DNA from: Solirubrobacterales bacterium
GTDB taxonomy: Bacteria > Actinomycetota > Thermoleophilia > Solirubrobacterales > 70-9
Direction: 5' to 3'
NCBI GenBank assembly: GCA_023958085.1
Contig: JAMLGI010000004.1
Coordinates: 1-64,000 of the forward strand
Length of the DNA stretch: 64,000 bases
Shown here piece after piece: positions 54,323 to 63,638 of the stretch. The notes under the pieces are model-generated. The model saw only the letters and a list, made by a program, of their open reading frames with translations, did no database searches and was not told the DNA's origin. A program made the translations under genes and the position numbers. The first letter of the stretch is position 1, and every line of letters starts with the position of its first letter.

Positions 54323-55177
54323 TCAACGGTGGATGCGGACCGCTGTACCCAGTGAAACCCGGACTATCTGACGGATCCGCTTGTTGTTCATCCGCACGCA
54401 GCCGTGGGATCGGGCCGAACCGAGCGGGTCGTAGAGACTGGCCCCGTCCCGTCCGTGAAGCGCGACCAGGCCCGGACCGCCGTCAAAGCGTCGGAGCTTG
54501 TCCGAGTGTGCGGTCAGCGGCACCGCCCACGGACCGATGAACCCGTTCGGGTCGGCCTGCCGGACCCGGTCGTAGGTCGCGAACAGCCCGAGCGGAGTCG
54601 GGGTGCTCCGTTTGCCCACGACCACCTTGAACGAGGCCCGACGCCGTCCCCTGAGACCGAAGACGGTAAGCCTCCTCCGCGAACGGTCGATCACGATGTA
54701 CCTTGGGGAGTGCCTCAGCGTGACCCGGTCGCGGGGAATCCAGCCCTTGGATCCGTTCGGCCTGATCGGCAGTCGCACCTTCAGCCACTGCCGGCCCTTG
54801 CGGCGTCGGGAACCCAGCACCATCAGCCACTGGGTCCCTCCCGACCAGCGCGTGAACGCCCGGGCGACCCACTTCACCCGTCGACCGGCCGGTCGGCGCC
54901 TTACCGCGGTCCGGATCAGAACTCTCGCCGTGTAGGTGCCGGTTCGCCGGCCCGGCCGTGGCACCCTGGCTCCGGGCAGGCGGGAGAGATGGATCCCTCG
55001 GTCGGTCCCGGCACCAACCGTGTCGGGCACCGAAATCGCCGGGGCGGGTGCCGGCACAAACCGGGGGTCGGTCGGCGACGGCTGCCCCGGCTCCGGCGCA
55101 ATCGAGGCGGCTGCCGCACCGCACCAGATGAGAGCGACAAGCCCGGCGAGGAGGAATGCCCGGGACAGGCGGCCCAT
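54323..55177 (-). CDS. L,D-transpeptidase paired with VWA-DUF11 protein
   Basis: 284 aa. Signal peptide (RAFLLAGLVALIWCGAAAAS), a ~75-residue Pro-rich linker, an SH3-like region (WVARAFTRWSGGTQWLMVLGSRR to GWIPRDRVTLR), and a YkuD catalytic domain with VVVGKRSTPTPLGLF, LVALHGRDG and SHGCVRMNNKRI (catalytic Cys/His). It is nearly identical in the catalytic domain to the protein at 60984. Both follow a DUF11 protein gene, here after 36 nt. It makes 3-3 cross-links or attaches a protein to peptidoglycan; the target is inferred from the pairing. Confidence 0.9.
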   Translation of the reverse strand: MGRLSRAFLLAGLVALIWCGAAAASIAPEPGQPSPTDPRFVPAPAPAISVPDTVGAGTDRGIHLSRLPGARVPRPGRRTGTYTARVLIRTAVRRRPAGRRVKWVARAFTRWSGGTQWLMVLGSRRRKGRQWLKVRLPIRPNGSKGWIPRDRVTLRHSPRYIVIDRSRRRLTVFGLRGRRRASFKVVVGKRSTPTPLGLFATYDRVRQADPNGFIGPWAVPLTAHSDKLRRFDGGPGLVALHGRDGASLYDPLGSARSHGCVRMNNKRIRQIVRVSLGTAVRIHR

Positions 55178-55213
55178 GATGCTCCGCTCGGCCTAACCGG
55201 CACCGGTGACCGG

Positions 55214-58200
55214 CTACCCGGTCACCGGGGTGTGACGGACCCGGCGTGCCCTGACCGGCGGGCGCTTGACCCGCACGGTCCAGCGAGCCTCGAGGTTCCG
55301 GAGGGTGACCACGTTCCTCAGCCGCTCGCCGGCACCGGCATTGTCCGCAACCCTCGCCACGTAGTGGAACCTGGTCCACTTCTTCGAGCCCTCAAGCCGC
55401 GGAATGTTCCAGCAGAGAAGCCCGTCGGAGAACTTTCCGGTGCCGGGGTTGGTGACCGTCATGTGATCCGGGATCCGGTCACAGACGTCGAGATCGGTTG
55501 CCACCGAGTGCAGCTTGGTGTTCCGGACCAGGATCGTGTACCTGACCTTCTGACCCGGCAGCGCGACCCGCAGGTTTGCCTTCTTCCTCAGCTGGAGGTG
55601 CGGCTGGAAACAACCGGTCGTGGCGCTGTCACGGTCGCCGGGCGCGTTTTCGGCGGTTCCGGTGGCCACGTTCCTGATCGGCTCACAGACCGTGTTGTTC
55701 ATCCTGGCGTGGATCTTCACGGTCACCGATTCACCGGCGGCAAGGTCACCAATCTCGCAGTGGAGCCTGGGCCCGCCCTCGGCGCCGGCCCGCCGCACCT
55801 TGCCCGGCTTCCTTGCGCGGCTGGGGTTGGCACCCTGAATGTCGCAGTTGGCGCCCTTGGTCTCGGACCCGATCCGCCACGGACCGGCGAGGGTGCTGAG
55901 CGGATCATCGAGGACCACACCGCGGGCGGTGCCCGGACCCTGATTGCTCACCTTGATCGCGAACGACACGTCGTCACCGATCCCGGTACGCCCGCCATCG
56001 GTCTTGTTGACCACGATCTTCGGCTTCTGACACTCGACACTGGCGCTGTCGGCCGCATCCGGGGCGTTCCCGGACTTGGCGGTCGCGGTGTTGTCGTAGG
56101 TGGCACAGTTCTCGTAATCGGTCGGTGCCTTGATCGTCACCGGGACCTTTGCGCCCGCCACCAGATCACCGAATTCACAGGTGAGTTTGCCTTCCGACAG
56201 CTCACACGGGCTGCCATCAGGCTGCGACGAAATGGTCCAGGCGCCCGCCACCCCGCTCGGGACGGAATCGCTTAGGGTGACGTTCCTCGCGACGCCCGGA
56301 CCACCGTTGGCCACCTCAATGGTGAACACAACTTCGTCGCCGGCATTGACGGTACCGTTGCCGTTTTTCACGACCGTGAGATTCGGTCGTTCACACTCGA
56401 TGCTGGCCGAATCGGAGGCGTCGTGGGCGTTCTCGCCACTTGCCACCGCGGTGTTGTCCAGCTTCGAGCAATTTTCAAAGTTGGTCGGGGCGCTCACCGT
56501 CACCGAACGCGGTCCGTCTTCCTTGGTCAGATCCCCGAAGTTGCAGGTCAGGGTGTTGCCCACGATCTGGCAGGGAGGCTCTCCCTCGGACCCTGGCTGA
56601 TCGGTGATCGTCCAGGGGCCGGACACGCCACCGGTCGGCAGCGGATCCGAAAGGGTCACATCCTTGGCCGTACCGTCTCCGGTGTTCGACGTGACGATCG
56701 TGAAGACCGCGTCGTCACCGGCGTTGATCGTACCCTCAACCGCTGTCTTCAGGGTCGCCAGAGCGGGCTTCCTGCAGGTCACCATTGCCTCACCGGTTGC
56801 TTCCGGGGCGTTGGTGGCCTTCGCGGTCGCCTCGTTGTCGTACAGGGTGCAATTGTCCCGGTCGGTCGGAGCCTTGACCGTCACCGAGAAGGTTGCTTCG
56901 ACGCCGAGATCTCCGAGATTCGGGCATGAGAGGGTCTGCTGTTCGCCGGGATCCCCGACGATCGTGCAGGGTCCGTCCACCGGCGAGGTGATCACCCAGG
57001 ATCCGGACACCCCGGTCGGGAGTGGGTCAGTCAGGCTGACGCCCTTGGCGGTGCCGGGCCCGGAGTTCGAAACCTCGATCGTGAACTCGACATCCTCGCC
57101 GGCGTTGATCGTGTCGCTGGGAGTTGTCTTGAGTACGCTCAGGTTCGGCTTCTGGCAGTAGATCGTGGCATCGTCGGAGGCTTCCGGAGCGTTGGTCGAC
57201 TTGACGTGAGCCCAGTTGAGCAGCTCGGAGCAGTGATCGAAATCGGTCGGTGCGCTCACCGTCACCGACCGGGGACCATCCTGCTTGGTCAGATCCCCAA
57301 AGTCACACTTGAGGGTGTATCCGGTATTCGCGTCCCCGGTGATCTCGCAGGGGTCGCCCGCCGGTTGATCGGTGATCGTCCAGGGCCCGGACACGTCGGT
57401 GGGCAGCGGATCGTCCAGGGTCACACCCGTGGCCGTGCCGTCGCCCGTGTTCTCGGTTACGATCGTGAAGACGGCGTTATCGCCCGCATCGATCGTTCCG
57501 GTCACTGCGGTCTTCAACACACCCAGGTTGGGCGGCACGCAGGTGATCTTCCCGCCATCGGATGTTTCCGGGGCGTTCGTCGCGGAAGCCTTCGCCGCCG
57601 GATTGTCGTAGGTACCACACTTCTCAAACGTGGTGGTGGTCTTCACCTTCAACGTCGTGGTCTGACCCGCCCCCAAATTCGGAACACCGGTGCAGGTCAA
57701 CAAATTCGAACCATTCACCGAACACGTCCCACCACCCGTCGGCTGCTGCGAAACAGTCCACGGCGTGGCACCCGGCGCCGGCAACTGATCCGAAATCACC
57801 GGGTTCAGGGCTGTAACCGAACCCTCATTCTTCACCTGGATCGTGAACTCCGCATCACCACCAGGAGAAACCACACCCGCATCCGGCGTCTTCGTCACCT
57901 TCAGGGTGGTGTTCTGGGAGTTGGTGTAGGTGCAGTAGACGGAGTCACCCCGGTTCACCTGGAGACTGAAGTTCAGCCCGGTCTGGGTTCCGTTGACGAT
58001 CGTTCCGTTGTCGTAGTCACCGTTGCGGCAGACCACGCTGTCAAGGTTGAAGGTGCCCGCGGCCAGAGGCTGCCCGTTTGCGTTCTCGTTCACCTGAACG
58101 GTGGTCGGGGTCATCGGCAGCTTGGTGAAGAATGCTCCGGTCTGAACCACCGGAGGACTGCCGCTCGCATGGGTGGCGTTGTTGCCATCGAGGTAGGTGG

Positions 58201-59623
58201 GAGCGGGAGCACCAGGACGGGGGTCGACCGCGGTGTATTTCCAGTTTGGCTGGTTTGTTGCGTCGCCCTGGAGGCGCTTGCGGACGTACACCCGGGCGCC
58301 GCACTGTTTCGCCGCCAGTTCCCGCAGGAAGGACTTGAGCTGATCGAGACTCGGCACCGCGTAGTCGCCGTCAACGCCCTGGGTCGGACCGGAGACCGCC
58401 TTCAGGTTTGCCGCGGTCGGAGGGGTGCCGCCGGGGTTGGAAACCCCGATTGCGAGGATCCTGGAATTGAACCCGGCCCTCGCGCTGCGGGCCTTGATCG
58501 AGTTGGCCGAAGCCATGCCAGCGGTCAGATCGAACATCTGGGTTGAACCGCCGGTGCCGGGGACCACTGTCTGGTTCACGGTCGGGTTGCCATCGGTGAT
58601 GAACACGACCAGATCGGGCTTGTCGGTACGGCCGGCGGCGCCACCTTTGGGGTCAAATCCTGCGGCGATGGAGGCGTCTTTAAGCGCGATGTCCCAGTTC
58701 GTCCCCCCGGCCGGGTTGGCGTACACATCATCGATGGTGTCTTTCAATTGCTGGGAGGTGACCGGGTTGCCGGTTTCCAGGTCAACCGGGGCATGGTAGA
58801 AATCGCTGTCCCCCTGGCCTCCACCGGTGTACGAGTTGAGGGCGAAGTTTCCTTGATAGTTGCTGCTGAAGCTGGTGATGGCGATCTGGGTCGGCGTCCC
58901 GTCGAGCTGGGTTACGAACTCCTTGGCGGCTGCCGCGTATGCCGCCGGGTCACCGTCCTGTTCGATCGAACCGGAACGGTCGAGGACCAGCAGGATGTTG
59001 AGGCCGCAGACGTTCGGCAGGTCGCTGTTGTCACGAGCGTTGATGAACGGGGAGCCGTTGTTGGTCACGGACGGCCCCTGGCTCGGAGTCCAATCGTCAG
59101 GATCCTTGTCCGAGTTCGAGTGGGGGTAGGCGTAGGTGGTCTGGCCGTCCCGCACCTGTACCCGGGCAACGTACTGCTGCGGTGGACTCGAACCAAAGGA
59201 GAGTTCTTTTTGGGCTCCGAGGTCCCTGAATCCGAGGCCGGCGTCCTTCTCCCTCACGTAGTAGACCGTCCCGCTTCCGGAAGTGGCACCGGGAACCGAC
59301 GCGCTGGCCTGACCGTTGACCCCGGTCCGGCTCGGGAAGGCGGTCCAGACTGTGGCGAGAAGGGTCGGGTCCCCGGTTGTCCACTCGAAAAGGGCACCGT
59401 CGTTTGCGTTGGCCGATCCGACGGGGTCTGCATAGGTGGTCGCGCCGGAAACAGCGGTCGAGGCGCTCCTGTCACCCCCCTTGGTCGCGATGATGGTCCC
59501 GTTGGCGCTGGCAGAAGACACACCCCAGGCGCTGAAAGCGATCAGGAGCAGGGCAAGGGCCAGGATTCCCGTGGCCGGTCTGCCGAGAAGCCTTACCGGT
59601 TGATGCGATTCCGTCGAATTCAT
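55214..59623 (-). CDS. Large secreted VWA and DUF11-repeat surface protein
   Basis: 1,469 aa. Signal peptide (GILALALLLIAFSAWGVSSASA), a beta-rich N-terminal domain, then a von Willebrand A domain at about 207-390 with MIDAS DRSGS and a later VVFITDGNP. A prealbumin-like domain (RVYVRKRLQGD to VYCTYTN) leads into seven DUF11 repeats from about 568, roughly 125 aa each, most with four regularly placed Cys. The last repeat forms the C-terminal domain shared with the protein at 61839, ending in RRVRHTPVTG. No LPxTG sorting signal or C-terminal membrane helix. ATG 59623 has GGAGG 8 nt upstream. Probably an adhesin or wall-surface fibre. Confidence 0.88.
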   Translation of the reverse strand: MNSTESHQPVRLLGRPATGILALALLLIAFSAWGVSSASANGTIIATKGGDRSASTAVSGATTYADPVGSANANDGALFEWTTGDPTLLATVWTAFPSRTGVNGQASASVPGATSGSGTVYYVREKDAGLGFRDLGAQKELSFGSSPPQQYVARVQVRDGQTTYAYPHSNSDKDPDDWTPSQGPSVTNNGSPFINARDNSDLPNVCGLNILLVLDRSGSIEQDGDPAAYAAAAKEFVTQLDGTPTQIAITSFSSNYQGNFALNSYTGGGQGDSDFYHAPVDLETGNPVTSQQLKDTIDDVYANPAGGTNWDIALKDASIAAGFDPKGGAAGRTDKPDLVVFITDGNPTVNQTVVPGTGGSTQMFDLTAGMASANSIKARSARAGFNSRILAIGVSNPGGTPPTAANLKAVSGPTQGVDGDYAVPSLDQLKSFLRELAAKQCGARVYVRKRLQGDATNQPNWKYTAVDPRPGAPAPTYLDGNNATHASGSPPVVQTGAFFTKLPMTPTTVQVNENANGQPLAAGTFNLDSVVCRNGDYDNGTIVNGTQTGLNFSLQVNRGDSVYCTYTNSQNTTLKVTKTPDAGVVSPGGDAEFTIQVKNEGSVTALNPVISDQLPAPGATPWTVSQQPTGGGTCSVNGSNLLTCTGVPNLGAGQTTTLKVKTTTTFEKCGTYDNPAAKASATNAPETSDGGKITCVPPNLGVLKTAVTGTIDAGDNAVFTIVTENTGDGTATGVTLDDPLPTDVSGPWTITDQPAGDPCEITGDANTGYTLKCDFGDLTKQDGPRSVTVSAPTDFDHCSELLNWAHVKSTNAPEASDDATIYCQKPNLSVLKTTPSDTINAGEDVEFTIEVSNSGPGTAKGVSLTDPLPTGVSGSWVITSPVDGPCTIVGDPGEQQTLSCPNLGDLGVEATFSVTVKAPTDRDNCTLYDNEATAKATNAPEATGEAMVTCRKPALATLKTAVEGTINAGDDAVFTIVTSNTGDGTAKDVTLSDPLPTGGVSGPWTITDQPGSEGEPPCQIVGNTLTCNFGDLTKEDGPRSVTVSAPTNFENCSKLDNTAVASGENAHDASDSASIECERPNLTVVKNGNGTVNAGDEVVFTIEVANGGPGVARNVTLSDSVPSGVAGAWTISSQPDGSPCELSEGKLTCEFGDLVAGAKVPVTIKAPTDYENCATYDNTATAKSGNAPDAADSASVECQKPKIVVNKTDGGRTGIGDDVSFAIKVSNQGPGTARGVVLDDPLSTLAGPWRIGSETKGANCDIQGANPSRARKPGKVRRAGAEGGPRLHCEIGDLAAGESVTVKIHARMNNTVCEPIRNVATGTAENAPGDRDSATTGCFQPHLQLRKKANLRVALPGQKVRYTILVRNTKLHSVATDLDVCDRIPDHMTVTNPGTGKFSDGLLCWNIPRLEGSKKWTRFHYVARVADNAGAGERLRNVVTLRNLEARWTVRVKRPPVRARRVRHTPVTG
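57610..57905 (-). other. Segment of atypical codon use in the first DUF11 repeat
   Basis: Within the VWA-DUF11 gene the first DUF11 repeat uses mostly T- and G-ending codons (GGT, AAT, TTG, ACG, GTT, TCT, CCT), while the repeats on both sides prefer C-ending codons. It suggests a recently acquired or converted segment. Confidence 0.5.
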
Positions 59624-59937
59624 CGTTACTGCCTCCTTCGTCCGGCGTGGTGCCGGTCCGATCTGACCCGCCCGATTCCGAAGCGGGGGATCCGGTCCAG
59701 TCAACTCCCGACCGGGTCCGCAGCCATCAAAGGTGGAAGGAGTTCAGCCCACAAGCGATTTCTGCCCGGAGGAATAGGGATCGGCCGGCAATTACCACCT
59801 TGGAGGTACTTCTTTCGACCTAATTCACTCCCGAAAGCAACCTCGGCACCGAAACGGCCCGGATGCACAGACTCCGCGCCGGAGTCGGTCAAGCCCTGTG
59901 GCCGGTGCGCAGCAAGCCCCAAGCCGGGCGGGAATGC
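59624..59937. other. Intergenic region between LuxR gene and VWA-DUF11 gene
   Basis: 314 nt without a gene. The only structure seen is a short imperfect palindrome at 59793-59808 (TACCACC-TT-GGAGGTA) that could be an operator, and the GGAGG ribosome-binding site next to 59623. No match to a riboswitch class was recognised. Confidence 0.5.
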
Positions 59938-60852
59938 TCAGCCGTCGGCCAGCAGCAGGGAAAGATGGACCCGGGAGTGAATCCCGAGTTTGGAGTAGAT
60001 GCTCCGGACGTGGCACTTCACGGTGCCCACGGTGATGTGGAGGGTCTCGGCGATCTCCTCGTTCCGTTTCCCGGAGGCGACCATCCGGGCGATCTCCATC
60101 TCCCGGCGGGTCAGGACCAGCCCTGCCGAATCGGTCGACCTCTGGCTCGGTGAGCCGGTGGAAAGGCGCCTGTCTCGTTCCGCATCGATCACGCTCGCGA
60201 GAGACTGGGAGATCAGCGGCGCCCAGTGCCGCAGGAAGCCTTTCTCCCGCTCGGTGAACTCGCTCTGGCCGGACATTCTCAGCAGACTGATCACACAGGT
60301 TGCGCCGGGGTCGACCGGTCGGAGGATGAGCGAGATGATCGACTCGAGACCCCACGCCGGCATGAGCCGGTTCGCGAAGTCACTCTCCGAGAAGCCGAGG
60401 TCACGGTCGAGAGCAGCCCGGTCCATGACCAGGGACTGGCCGGCACCGCCGGGCAGTTCCGCAGTCGGCTCATCAGCCTCGATCGAGGCCACGCAGTCCC
60501 GCTCGAGCGCAGCCGGGTCCGGGGTCAGAATCGAGTCCACCTTGATCTCGGCCAGGGAGCAGGGCTGGCCGTCCCTGGCCAGCAGAAAGAGCGCCATCGG
60601 GGCGGCGACCATGCTGCCGGCGAACTCCAGCGCCAGCCCGCCGAGGCGGGCGACGGGATCGCGGGCACGGATTGCATCACGGTGATTCAGCGGGAACAAC
60701 GCAGGACCGGCCCCCGGTGGCCGTTCCGGCCGGATATCAGGCTTTCTCGAATTGACCCGTTCCGCCATGCCGTCCTGAATTTTTTCGACGCCGGCGGCCC
60801 TGGCCCGTCGGGCGATGATTTCGTGAAGCGAAGTCGGAATCGGTCTGATCAC
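59938..60852 (-). CDS. LuxR-type transcriptional regulator
   Basis: 304 aa. C-terminal LuxR HTH (about 238-300): LTRREMEIARMVASGKRNEEIAETLHITVGTVKCHVRSIYSKLGIHSRVHL. The N-terminal ~220 residues resemble a GAF-type sensor domain (LFLLARDGQPCSLAEIKVDS, ATCVISLLRMSGQSEFTEREKGFLRHWAPL); no receiver Asp motif is seen. GTG 60852 start. It is located between the two DUF11/L,D-transpeptidase modules, on the same strand, behind two tandem palindromic boxes. It likely controls the VWA-DUF11 module or itself. Confidence 0.88.
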   Translation of the reverse strand: MIRPIPTSLHEIIARRARAAGVEKIQDGMAERVNSRKPDIRPERPPGAGPALFPLNHRDAIRARDPVARLGGLALEFAGSMVAAPMALFLLARDGQPCSLAEIKVDSILTPDPAALERDCVASIEADEPTAELPGGAGQSLVMDRAALDRDLGFSESDFANRLMPAWGLESIISLILRPVDPGATCVISLLRMSGQSEFTEREKGFLRHWAPLISQSLASVIDAERDRRLSTGSPSQRSTDSAGLVLTRREMEIARMVASGKRNEEIAETLHITVGTVKCHVRSIYSKLGIHSRVHLSLLLADG

Positions 60853-60898
60853 CGACTACGTATTTCTCCACACTACTTCTCAGTAGATTTCCGCAGAC

Positions 60899-60904
60899 AT
60901 CTTA
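60899..60904 (-). promoter_or_regulatory. Putative -10 box of the LuxR gene
   Basis: TAAGAT on the minus strand, 46 nt before the GTG. Its -35 position falls at the proximal operator box, with no TTGACA match, so the promoter may need an activator. A GAGA-tetraloop hairpin (60873-60886) lies in the leader. Confidence 0.4.
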
Positions 60905-60916
60905 ACAGAAACTAAA

Positions 60917-60951
60917 CTGTTCACCGAACGGTTCGCGGCTGTTCACCGAAC
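60917..60951. promoter_or_regulatory. Two tandem GTTC-N3-GAAC operator-like boxes
   Basis: GTTCACCGAAC at 60919-60929 and again at 60941-60951; the repeated word is CTGTTCACCGAAC, 22 bp apart, about two helical turns. Each box is palindromic (GTTC/GAAC). They lie between the L,D-transpeptidase stop and the LuxR start, overlapping the -35 region. Confidence 0.65.
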
Positions 60952-60983
60952 CGGGCACGGTGATCGGACCGTGAGGGTGCCGG

Positions 60984-61820
60984 TCATCGACGAATACGAA
61001 CCGCGATCCCGAGCGGGAGTGCCACGAGCTGACGGATCCGCTTGTTGTTCATACGGACGCAGCCGTGGGATCGGGCCGAACCGAGCGGGTCGTACAGGCT
61101 GGCCCCGTCGCGGCCGTGGAAGGCGATCAGGCCCGGGCCACCGTCGTACCGCTTCAGCCTCTCGGAGTGAGCGGTGAGCGGCATCGCCCAGGGTCCGATG
61201 AAGCCGTCCGGGTTCCGCTGTCGCACCCGGTCGTAGGTCGCGAACAGGCCGAGCGGGGTCGGGGTGCTCCGTTTGCCCACGACAACCCGCCAGCGTGCCC
61301 TGCGCCAACCGTTCCGGAAAACGGTGAGTCTGCGCCGGGAGCGATCCAGCACCAGGTAGTACGGTGAGCGCCGGAGCGCCACCCGGTCCCGCGGCAGCCA
61401 TCCCGCCCTGCCGTTGGGACGGCCCGGAAGCCGGACCTTCAGCCACTGTCGGCGATCCGCGACCCGCGATCCGAGCACCATCAACTTCTGGCTGCCACCG
61501 GACCACTTCGCCCAGCCCCGCGCCACCCAGATGCGTCGGCCACCGGGTCGGCTGCGAACGGTGGTGCGAACCACGATCCGGGCAGTCCAGGTTCCGCGCT
61601 GGCGGCTCGGTGGCCGGACTCTGGTCGGCTGGATGGCAGAAATCCCGGTGGCTCGTCTGGTTTTCGAATCGAGCCGCTGCGGCACCGGTCGAGCAGGTCC
61701 CGCTGCAGGAGTGAACTCCGGGTCAGGCGAGACCGCCGGTGAGCCACCCGCGGCAGCCGGAAGCGAGCCGGCCACAGCGACCAGCCCTCCAACCAGCAGA
61801 GTCCGCAAACGGCGTCTCAT
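60984..61820 (-). CDS. L,D-transpeptidase paired with DUF11 protein
   Basis: 278 aa. Signal peptide (LLVGGLVAVAGSLPAAAGG), linker, SH3-like region (WVARGWAKWSGGSQKLMVLGSR) and a YkuD domain with VVVGKRSTPTPLGLF, LIAFHGRDG and SHGCVRMNNKRI. It is a paralogue of the protein at 54323; the two share long identical runs in the catalytic domain. It follows the DUF11 gene after 18 nt, so the two are almost certainly co-transcribed. Confidence 0.9.
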   Translation of the reverse strand: MRRRLRTLLVGGLVAVAGSLPAAAGGSPAVSPDPEFTPAAGPARPVPQRLDSKTRRATGISAIQPTRVRPPSRQRGTWTARIVVRTTVRSRPGGRRIWVARGWAKWSGGSQKLMVLGSRVADRRQWLKVRLPGRPNGRAGWLPRDRVALRRSPYYLVLDRSRRRLTVFRNGWRRARWRVVVGKRSTPTPLGLFATYDRVRQRNPDGFIGPWAMPLTAHSERLKRYDGGPGLIAFHGRDGASLYDPLGSARSHGCVRMNNKRIRQLVALPLGIAVRIRR

Positions 61821-61838
61821 CGATCCCCGGGCCGGACC

Positions 61839-63638
61839 CTACCCGGTCACCGGGGTCTTGCGCCCGGGCCTCCGCTTCTTCGCTGCCTTGATCTTCACGA
61901 CTGCATGAGCCTCAAGGTTCCCGACGCGGGCACCGTCCCTGGTCCGTTTTCCGTTCGGAGCGTTCAGGTCGACCCGGGTCGTGTAGTGGAACCTGATCCA
62001 GGGCGCTTTGCCCCGAAGTCGCCTGACGTTCCAGCAGATTCGTCCCCGGCTGAGCCGGCCGCCCCCCCGGTTTGTCACGACCATCCGTGGGGCGATCCGG
62101 TCACATACCCGCAGATTCTTCGCCACCGAGCCCTTCCTGCGATTGCGAACCGACACCGTCCATCGCACCCGCTGTCCCGGGCGGGCAACCGCACGGTTGG
62201 CTTTCACCCGGAGCTGCAGCTTCGGGGTCGGCTTCCGGCGTGGTTTCGTGACCGGTTTCTCGCCCGGGTTCGGCGCTGACCGCTGGCAGACCACCTGGGC
62301 AGTAGCCCGCAGCTCCTCGACGTCGATCGCCGACACGGCCGCGGTACTCAGGTAGGTGCCGCAGTCCTGCTCGGAGGTCGGGGCCCTGACGGTGACGCTG
62401 CGGAACTCACCCGGGCCCAGGTTCCCGTAGCTGCAAGTGAGGACTCCGCTCACGATCTGGCAGAAGCCGTCTCCCGCCTGGGTGCCGGTTGCGATCTGCC
62501 ACGGTCCGGCAGTCCCGTCCGGCAGTGGGTTGGTAAGGACCGGGCTCTTCACCCCGATGTCGCCGGGGTTCGAGGTCACGACCGTGAAGGAAACAGGCTC
62601 GCCGGGGTTGATCACGGGGTCTTGTGCGGTGTTGGTCAGTGCCAGGATGGGTGGCAGCTGCTGCCGGCAGGTGACGGTGGCTTCAGCCGTCGCGGCCGGT
62701 AGCGGGTCGCGCACCTCCTGGCTCTGGTAGACCTCGGCCGTGTTGTGGTAGGTGGAGCAGTGGTCCACGCTGGTCGGCGCCCGGACCGTCACCACGAACG
62801 ATTCGCCGGGAGCGAGATCTCCCAGCGGTCCGCAGCTGAGCTGGAGCTCTTCCCCCTCTGATTCGTAGATACCGCAGATCGGATTCCCTTCCCCATCCTC
62901 AGGTCCGTTGACGATCTCCCAGGGTGCAGCGGTGTCACCGGGCAGTTCGTCGATGAGATAGAGCGACGCCCAGATCGTCCCCGGATCGGGATCCTCACCG
63001 GACGGTGGAGTCGTGTTGGTGAAGGTCATCGTGAAGGTGACATCCTGGCCGGCCACCACAGTCTCGCTGCCCGGGATCTTGGTCAGTTCGATCTCGGGAC
63101 CATCGCAGTTGACCGTCGCCCCGTCGGTCAGCTCGACGGTTCCGGAGCCGTCGGTGGCGGTGACCGAAGCCTGGTTCGAATAGGTCGAGCAGCGCCCGAT
63201 CCCGGTCCACGCCCAGATGTTGACCATGACCGCTTCGCCGGCCGGGACCTGATCGAACTGGCAGGACAGGGACTGGGCACCACCCTCGCCGGTGATCTCG
63301 CACTCCTGGGGATCGGCATAGTCGTTCGGACTCCAGTCGACCTGCCAGTTAAGCTCGGCACCTCCCGGCAACGGATCACTGATCATGATGTCGGCCGGCA
63401 TGGAGCCGTTGTTTGTGGCCGAGATCGTGAACTCGGCCCGATCGCCGGCGTAGATCTCGAGGACCTCCGCGGAGCCGTCGCCGTAGCCGGCGACCTTGCT
63501 CAGGCTGACGTCGGGTGCGGCCGAAGCCTGCTCCGGCAGGGCCCCCAACATCCCCAGCAGCAACAGCAGCAGGACGAAGCCAGCTGCGCCGGAGAGAAGC
63601 GGCCTGCCGCCGCCGGCCGACTGCCTCAATGCACGCAT
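61839..63638 (-). CDS. Secreted DUF11-repeat surface protein
   Basis: 599 aa. Signal peptide (GAAGFVLLLLLLGMLGALPEQASA), then three DUF11-like repeats of ~120-140 aa, each with CxxxxxC and C(S/G)TY...C Cys pairs, then a terminal domain (LQLRVKANRAVARPGQRVRWTVSVRN, VCDRIAPRMVVTN, CWNVRRLRG, WIRFHYTTRV) shared with the VWA-DUF11 protein. It ends in RRPGRKTPVTG. ATG 63638 or an in-frame TTG two codons earlier, which is better spaced from GGAG. Downstream of metK on the same strand. Confidence 0.85.
   Translation of the reverse strand: MRALRQSAGGGRPLLSGAAGFVLLLLLLGMLGALPEQASAAPDVSLSKVAGYGDGSAEVLEIYAGDRAEFTISATNNGSMPADIMISDPLPGGAELNWQVDWSPNDYADPQECEITGEGGAQSLSCQFDQVPAGEAVMVNIWAWTGIGRCSTYSNQASVTATDGSGTVELTDGATVNCDGPEIELTKIPGSETVVAGQDVTFTMTFTNTTPPSGEDPDPGTIWASLYLIDELPGDTAAPWEIVNGPEDGEGNPICGIYESEGEELQLSCGPLGDLAPGESFVVTVRAPTSVDHCSTYHNTAEVYQSQEVRDPLPAATAEATVTCRQQLPPILALTNTAQDPVINPGEPVSFTVVTSNPGDIGVKSPVLTNPLPDGTAGPWQIATGTQAGDGFCQIVSGVLTCSYGNLGPGEFRSVTVRAPTSEQDCGTYLSTAAVSAIDVEELRATAQVVCQRSAPNPGEKPVTKPRRKPTPKLQLRVKANRAVARPGQRVRWTVSVRNRRKGSVAKNLRVCDRIAPRMVVTNRGGGRLSRGRICWNVRRLRGKAPWIRFHYTTRVDLNAPNGKRTRDGARVGNLEAHAVVKIKAAKKRRPGRKTPVTG

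What the first reader, a model, noticed from the sequence alone, without database searches (positions are those of the whole stretch)
54323..63638. Duplicated surface-protein plus L,D-transpeptidase modules around a LuxR regulator
Two same-strand modules each consist of a large secreted DUF11-repeat protein gene followed within 18-36 nt by a YkuD L,D-transpeptidase gene. The two transpeptidases are near-identical in their catalytic domains, while a third one at 6.9 kb is not. The two surface proteins share their last ~120 residues. A LuxR regulator with its own operator-like boxes separates the modules. Known precedent: L,D-transpeptidases attach Braun lipoprotein and some outer-membrane proteins to peptidoglycan. 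Inference: each enzyme is dedicated to anchoring or positioning its partner, giving a sortase-independent wall-display system. I do not know a described system with this exact layout.
Basis: partly seen in the sequence, partly recalled or inferred. Interest (0 to 1): 0.8.

Follow-up and report, generated by a model that had tools for sequence, protein, structure and literature searches.

The report
Transpeptidase paired with C-terminal TG-tailed proteins
In actinobacteria of the class Thermoleophilia and some relatives, many unrelated surface proteins end in the same three-residue tail (Phe/Val/Leu-Thr-Gly) and are encoded directly next to a wall-building L,D-transpeptidase, which suggests an undescribed, sortase-like way of bolting proteins to the bacterial cell wall.

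Summary
The two modules are real. The shared ~120-residue domain is not the key. Both surface proteins end exactly in -TPVTG. In relatives the gene directly upstream of this SH3-YkuD L,D-transpeptidase (LDT) ends in [F/V/I/L]-[T/A]-G-COOH at 92 of 143 loci. Controls: 2/56 one gene further up, 2/50 just downstream, 0/30 upstream of a housekeeping LDT from the same genomes. The tail sits on unrelated proteins: DUF11, ice-binding, SpaA, choice-of-anchor A and D, trypsin, ferritin-like, NHL propeller. On the LDT tree the letter at position -3 (F, V or L) changes only 4 times among 103 loci (shuffled mean 37), the partner's domain class 9 times among 59. The tail therefore follows the enzyme, not the adhesin: DUF11 proteins carry VTG, FTG or LTG according to the LDT clade. 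All four Gly codons are used, so selection acts on the protein. The own genome has no sortase. Best reading: a C-terminal sorting signal whose Thr-Gly bond is opened by the paired LDT and the protein joined to peptidoglycan, a sortase-like reaction with the protein as donor, the reverse of Lpp attachment. Pairing and enzyme-tail covariation are shown; covalent linkage and polarity are inferred.

The parts
54323..55177 (-). LDT-A: secreted SH3-like + YkuD L,D-transpeptidase, partner of the large surface protein
   Evidence: PF03734 E 3.5e-17; HGR...SHGCVR motif; 65% identical to LDT-B
55214..59623 (-). Large secreted surface protein: signal peptide, VWA domain, 7 DUF11 repeats, ends TPVTG (ORF opens at 59704; likely ATG start 59623)
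55217..55231 (-). C-terminal tail TPVTG-COOH of the large surface protein (stop codon 55214-55216)
   Evidence: DNA read
59793..59808 (.). Near-palindrome TACCTCCAAGGTGGTA between the LuxR gene and the large surface-protein gene; possible operator
   Evidence: function untested
59938..60852 (-). LuxR/GerE-type regulator; a 41% identical homologue sits directly upstream of the single module in relative G012 (L035)
60917..60960 (.). Two copies of a 22-bp direct repeat upstream of the LuxR gene
   Evidence: function untested
60984..61820 (-). LDT-B: secreted SH3-like + YkuD L,D-transpeptidase, partner of the small surface protein; His235 and Cys254 catalytic
   Evidence: PF03734 E 2.6e-19; AlphaFold model, mostly pLDDT over 85 from residue 80 on; closest solved folds are LDTs
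61839..63638 (-). Small secreted DUF11 surface protein, ends TPVTG
61842..61856 (-). C-terminal tail TPVTG-COOH of the small surface protein (stop codon 61839-61841)
   Evidence: DNA read

Best explanation
Each module is a substrate plus its own anchoring enzyme. The surface protein is exported by its signal peptide and carries at its extreme C-terminus a short signal: a basic, Pro/Ala/Arg-rich linker, then P-x-F-[TA]-G or GG/TP-V-T-G with a free carboxylate. The adjacent secreted SH3-YkuD LDT recognises this tail. The proposed chemistry is that its catalytic Cys attacks the L-Thr(or Ala)-Gly bond, releases the C-terminal Gly (the only genetically encoded residue without an L side chain, so the only one that could stand in for the D-Ala that LDTs normally expel), and transfers the protein's new C-terminal carbonyl to an amine of peptidoglycan, probably the free amine of diaminopimelate. 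The result would be a covalently wall-linked surface protein, as sortase makes at LPXT|G, but with an LDT. Shown: conserved gene pairing, tail conservation across unrelated proteins, tail letter tracking enzyme clade, intact catalytic motif and fold. Inferred: that the tail is the substrate, that Thr-Gly is cut, and the peptidoglycan linkage. In the window the module has been duplicated at a der - pgi - tkt locus where relative G012 has one copy behind the LuxR gene.
For: Tail next to LDT: 92/143 immediate same-strand upstream genes, against 2/56 at upstream-2 and 2/50 at downstream-1 (Fisher 9e-17 and 4e-15). Housekeeping LDT of the same genomes: 0/30 (Fisher 4e-12). After collapsing LDTs to about 50% identity: 19 of 31 loci. 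Partners recognised as DUF11, ice-binding, SpaA, choice-of-anchor A or NHL: 59 of 61 end so. In ice-binding genes of the order nearly every complete one ends in [FYL][TA]G and has the LDT just downstream; the one clear ice-binding gene without an LDT in its locus also lacks the tail. DUF11 proteins of the own genome that are not beside an LDT lack the tail. Letter at -3: 4 changes on the LDT tree against shuffled mean 36.9, minimum 31; within DUF11 partners alone 2 against mean 5.85, minimum 4. Codon diversity at the tail shows protein-level selection. The LDT positions that differ most between F- and V-type enzymes fall largely in the loop between catalytic His235 and Cys254 (237-250). Active-site residues invariant in 52 LDTs. 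LDTs need a tetrapeptide donor, expel its terminal residue, and accept Gly (PMC12729407). Partner domains choice_anch_A and choice_anch_D carry names given, to my knowledge, because such proteins use alternative C-terminal anchors.
Against: No biochemical evidence. Every protein attachment by an LDT in the 2025 review has the protein as acceptor (PMC12729407), so donor polarity would be unprecedented. About half of the LDTs on the tree (86 of 189) have no TG neighbour found; some are contig ends or gene-calling failures, some may do something else. Exceptions exist: a Miltoncostaea oceani DUF11-type partner ends PVPVTR and a SpaA-type partner ends TRCG. Enzyme-tail concordance is partly expected from inheritance of the pair as a unit, although the partner domain changed more often than the tail letter. 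The positions that differ between F- and V-type enzymes also carry plain phylogenetic signal.
Confidence: 0.62

Rival explanations
1. The LDT attaches the protein in the classical direction: a peptidoglycan tetrapeptide is the donor and an amine of the surface protein (N-terminal alpha-amine, as reported for Brucella outer-membrane proteins, or an internal Lys) is the acceptor. The C-terminal TG is only a docking tag for the enzyme.
For: All reported LDT protein attachments have this polarity (PMC12729407; PMC12274547). Many surface proteins have free N-termini after signal cleavage.
Against: No conserved Lys near the tail (8 of 90 in the last five residues). A rough scan shows no conserved residue after the signal peptide. 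The requirement for a free C-terminal Gly preceded by Thr or Ala looks like a leaving group rather than a tag.
Confidence: 0.15
2. The LDT does not modify the protein. It remodels peptidoglycan locally so that a large adhesin can pass or insert, and the TG tail serves non-covalent targeting or protection from carboxypeptidases.
For: LDTs mainly crosslink peptidoglycan. The linker before the tail is strongly basic (mean net charge +4.0 over 25 residues, against -0.2 in other genes), which could bind anionic wall polymers.
Against: The tail letter at -3 tracks the LDT clade across different partner domains (4 changes), which suggests direct recognition. Pairing also occurs with small partners such as a ferritin-like protein of 236 aa. 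The housekeeping LDT has no such partner.
Confidence: 0.15
3. The LDT polymerises the partner into fibres, joining the TG carboxyl of one subunit to an amine of the next, like class C sortases with SpaA pilins, and wall anchoring is secondary.
For: Some partners have SpaA prealbumin-like and SdrD_B domains. A TasA gene and a signal peptidase gene lie beside the pair in Miltoncostaea oceani.
Against: Most partners are single-gene adhesins or enzymes (ice-binding, trypsin, ferritin-like) without pilin features; no conserved acceptor Lys was seen near the tail.
Confidence: 0.05
4. Coincidence: adjacency and TG ends are inherited from one ancestral pair, without functional connection.
For: Many loci are related by descent.
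Against: At least eight unrelated partner folds; divergent and convergent neighbours with the tail as well; 19 of 31 loci after collapsing LDTs to about 50% identity; partner class changed 9 times with the tail kept.
Confidence: 0.03

Closest known systems
Sortase / LPXTG cell-wall anchoring (classes A-F, incl. class E LAXTG of actinobacteria)
   Same: Secreted Cys transpeptidase next to its substrates; C-terminal signal ending in Thr-Gly (or Ala-Gly); substrates are adhesins with SpaA, SdrD_B, VWA and DUF11 domains
   Different: Enzyme is a YkuD fold, not a sortase fold; no sortase PF04203 in this genome or in the own-genus genomes listed; TG is the very C-terminus, with no transmembrane segment and basic tail behind it; basic residues precede it
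LDT-mediated attachment of Braun lipoprotein and OutB (E. coli, Dickeya)
   Same: YkuD LDTs joining proteins to peptidoglycan through a short C-terminal box
   Different: There the C-terminal Lys amine is the acceptor and meso-DAP of the stem the donor (PMC12274547); here the tail has no conserved Lys and ends in Gly, and the host lineage is actinobacterial
LDT-mediated attachment of outer-membrane beta-barrels (Brucella, Coxiella, Agrobacterium)
   Same: Dedicated LDTs fix surface proteins
   Different: Attachment through the protein N-terminus in diderm Proteobacteria, as I recall the literature; here the conserved feature is C-terminal
Exosortase/PEP-CTERM and related CTERM sorting systems
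   Same: Many unrelated proteins share a short C-terminal signal; choice-of-anchor domains occur
   Different: CTERM signals include a transmembrane helix and basic end, and the enzyme is a membrane protein (own knowledge). No CTERM model in NCBIfam matched
YkuD L,D-transpeptidases YkuD (B. subtilis), LdtMt1/LdtMt2, Ldtfm
   Same: Same catalytic fold and SHGCxR motif
   Different: N-terminal SH3-like domain, clade-specific His-Cys loop, and operon pairing with TG-tailed proteins

Membership tests
YkuD L,D-transpeptidase | YkuD domain with conserved catalytic His and SHGC(V/I)R motif | tested here: met
   PF03734 in 52/52; H159, S175, G177, C178, R180 of the alignment invariant in 52 sequences
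YkuD L,D-transpeptidase | Fold of known LDTs | tested here: met
   B. subtilis YkuD 4a1i Z 17.1 over 136 residues; LdtMt1/LdtMt2 Z 14-15
YkuD L,D-transpeptidase | L,D-transpeptidase activity on tetrapeptide donors | not testable with these tools
   needs enzyme assay
Sortase / LPXTG system | Sortase-fold enzyme (PF04203) | tested here: not met
   0 matches in own genome and none in the own-genus genomes listed; 117/183 order genomes have one separately
Sortase / LPXTG system | LPXTG-type motif followed by hydrophobic helix and basic tail | tested here: not met
   tail ends the protein at TG; nothing follows
Sortase / LPXTG system | Cleavage between Thr and Gly and transfer to a wall amine | not testable with these tools
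   proposed, not shown
Lpp-type LDT attachment | C-terminal Lys as acceptor | tested here: not met
   last residue Gly; Lys in last five residues in 8/90
N-terminal (Brucella-type) LDT attachment | conserved mature N-terminus as acceptor | tested here: inconclusive
   rough signal-peptide scan shows no conserved first residue; start codons uncertain
PEP-CTERM / other CTERM sorting | C-terminal motif + transmembrane helix + basic end matched by a CTERM model | tested here: not met
   no CTERM model among NCBIfam hits of 19 proteins, 17 of them partners; no helix after the motif

The most novel reading that the evidence does not exclude
A protein-sorting pathway convergent with sortases: a YkuD L,D-transpeptidase uses the protein's own C-terminal L-Thr-Gly bond as acyl donor, with Gly replacing the D-Ala leaving group, and links the protein C-terminus to peptidoglycan. 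This would reverse the polarity of all reported LDT protein attachments and extend LDT-mediated protein anchoring to actinobacteria, with several specificity classes (FTG, VTG, LTG) set by the enzyme.
Probability: 0.55. Interest if true: 0.93.

Novelty: new variant of a known kind. Interest (0 to 1): 0.86.

Why it matters
Many adhesins of actinobacteria have no recognised anchor: a large survey found an anchor in only about half of its known fibrillar adhesins and suggested that unknown anchor motifs remain to be found (PMC9210967). The TG tail with its adjacent LDT is a concrete candidate that can be searched in any genome and tested with one enzyme and one peptide. If right, it gives a second enzyme family able to do sortase chemistry, predicts which proteins are wall-linked across a class that includes cultured species, explains why some genomes expand this LDT family (up to 10-11 copies), and offers a new peptide-ligation tool with a minimal C-terminal tag.

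Tried and rejected
DUF11 or the shared 120-residue domain as the defining partner feature: rejected, since partners are unrelated folds and other DUF11 proteins of the genome have neither LDT nor tail. Overlapping-gene artefact (GGATGA start-stop overlap forcing Gly): rejected, as all Gly codons and three stop codons are used and many pairs do not overlap. Sortase in the same genome: none found. General property of LDT neighbours: rejected by the PG_binding_4-YkuD control, 0/30. Thr hydroxyl as acceptor: disfavoured by Ala variants FAG/VAG (7 of 93). A literature search for sortase-independent plus D-transpeptidase found nothing, and searches with DUF11 or ice-binding plus D-transpeptidase returned nothing on this pairing. 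A genome-contig scan with the full LDT alignment failed because it was too divergent; the VTG subset was used instead. Whole-genome download was not available, so TG-tailed proteins far from any LDT could not be counted genome-wide. PLSDB held one plasmid match, Miltoncostaea oceani, whose partner is one of the exceptions.

Full report
What is in the window. Two minus-strand modules lie between a der-like GTPase gene and pgi/tkt. Each has a large secreted protein followed by an SH3-YkuD L,D-transpeptidase (LDT) gene, with gaps of 18 and 36 nt. The large protein (55214-59623) has a VWA domain and seven DUF11 repeats; the small one (61839-63638) at least two DUF11 repeats. The enzymes are 65% identical overall; the LDT at 6.9 kb is a PG_binding_4-YkuD enzyme of another type. 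A LuxR-type gene separates the modules. In relative G012 (locus L035) the same neighbourhood holds one LuxR - DUF11 - LDT module (LuxR 41% identical), so the window shows a module duplication. Both surface proteins end in the identical residues TPVTG.

The tail. Looking at relatives I noticed that the gene in front of this LDT ends in Thr-Gly even when it is not a DUF11 protein. I then fetched LDT loci across the order, the class, the phylum and named genomes. The upstream gene was chosen by coding score, without regard to its ending. Of 143 immediate same-strand upstream genes 92 end in a hydrophobic residue, then Thr or Ala, then Gly; at the second position upstream it is 2 of 56, and just downstream on the same strand 2 of 50. 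A further set of neighbours on the opposite strand carry the tail too. The tails are FTG 43, VTG 34, FAG 6, LTG 5, ITG 4, VAG 1. F tails mostly have Pro at -5 (PxFTG), V tails mostly Gly (GGVTG). The housekeeping LDT of the same genomes gives 0 of 30. After collapsing LDTs to about 50% identity, 19 of 31 loci still have the tail. Codons for the last residues vary, so this is protein-level conservation.

Partners are unrelated. Pfam and NCBIfam name DUF11 and SpaA folds, ice-binding PF11999, pAdhesive_15/choice-of-anchor A, choice-of-anchor D, SdrD_B, trypsin plus DUF11, ferritin-like, NHL propeller plus fn3 and Ig-like domains. Among partners in the main surface classes 59 of 61 end with the tail. 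Seen from the other side, nearly all complete ice-binding genes of the order that belong to the main group end in [FYL][TA]G and have the LDT just downstream; the clear ice-binding gene without an LDT in its locus (L195) also lacks the tail. DUF11 proteins elsewhere in the own genome have neither. The 25 residues before the tail are basic (mean net charge +4.0 against -0.2 in other genes).

The tail follows the enzyme. On a FastTree of 189 LDTs the letter at -3 (F/V/L) needs 4 changes among 103 TG loci (shuffled mean 36.9, minimum 31); the partner class needs 9 among 59 loci; DUF11 partners alone need 2 (shuffled mean 5.85, minimum 4). DUF11 partners have VTG with V-clade enzymes, FTG with F-clade ones and LTG with the L clade; choice-of-anchor A partners likewise occur as GGVTG and PHFTG. 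The positions that differ most between F- and V-type enzymes concentrate in residues 237-250, between catalytic His235 and Cys254, and in 194-216. This is what recognition of the tail by the enzyme would give, although plain phylogeny contributes.

Enzyme. The AlphaFold model is confident from about residue 80 on, apart from the 246-249 loop, and matches B. subtilis YkuD (Z 17) and mycobacterial LDTs (Z 14-15). Catalytic residues are invariant. Thirteen of 52 members also hit a bacterial SH3 domain model.

Mechanism. LDTs use a tetrapeptide donor, attack the L-centre of residue 3, expel the terminal D-Ala and pass the acyl group to an amine; Gly is a known acceptor, and in all reviewed protein attachments the protein is the acceptor (PMC12729407), for example through a C-terminal Lys in Lpp and OutB (PMC12274547). 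The tails here have no conserved Lys and few acidic residues. A C-terminal Gly behind L-Thr or L-Ala is the one encoded arrangement that could mimic L-residue-D-Ala. I therefore infer that the LDT opens the Thr-Gly bond and joins the protein to peptidoglycan. This step is inference; docking-only and remodelling models remain possible.

Distribution. Order-wide in the group of the window; in other families of the class; in several families outside the class within the phylum; in cultured Solirubrobacter soli, S. phytolaccae, S. deserti, Conexibacter arvalis and Patulibacter minatonensis. Sortase is absent from the own genome and from the own-genus genomes listed, while 117 of 183 genomes of the order have one, so the two systems can coexist.

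Novelty. No description was found in the searched papers and no NCBIfam C-terminal model matched. The system fails defining tests of sortase and of Lpp-type attachment, but it works like a sortase pair. I file it as a new variant of transpeptidase-based protein anchoring; if donor polarity is confirmed it would deserve a class of its own. Limits: gene calls by codon score, incomplete genomes, no experiment, and papers limited to an open-access library.

Noticed in passing
window 54323-63638 versus L035 (G012): The window has two surface-protein/LDT modules at the der - pgi - tkt locus where relative G012 has one with a LuxR gene; G005 and G002 also show tandem modules or LDTs.
   Followed up: partly
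window 60917-60960 and 59793-59808: 22-bp direct repeat before the LuxR gene and a 16-bp near-palindrome before the large surface-protein gene; possible autoregulatory operators.
   Followed up: partly
L042, L046, L047: A starred, deep LDT subclade (L042-L044, L046, L047) has no TG neighbour; in several of its loci the LDT follows a gene of about 200 aa ending e.g. SLYTAPLR. Possibly a different substrate type.
   Followed up: no
L446 1737-4690 (Miltoncostaea oceani plasmid): A TasA family gene and a signal peptidase I gene sit beside an SdrD_B protein/LDT pair whose protein ends PVPVTR instead of PVPVTG.
   Followed up: no
L374, L396, L398: MAG records titled Bifidobacterium breve hold loci of the Solirubrobacterales type; probably mislabelled bins.
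   Followed up: no
G068, G079 and other genomes: This LDT family expands to 10-11 copies in single genomes, which suggests one enzyme per substrate.
   Followed up: partly
L118, L144, L146, L137, L161 and others: TG-tailed genes also occur next to the LDT on the opposite strand, divergent or convergent.
   Followed up: partly
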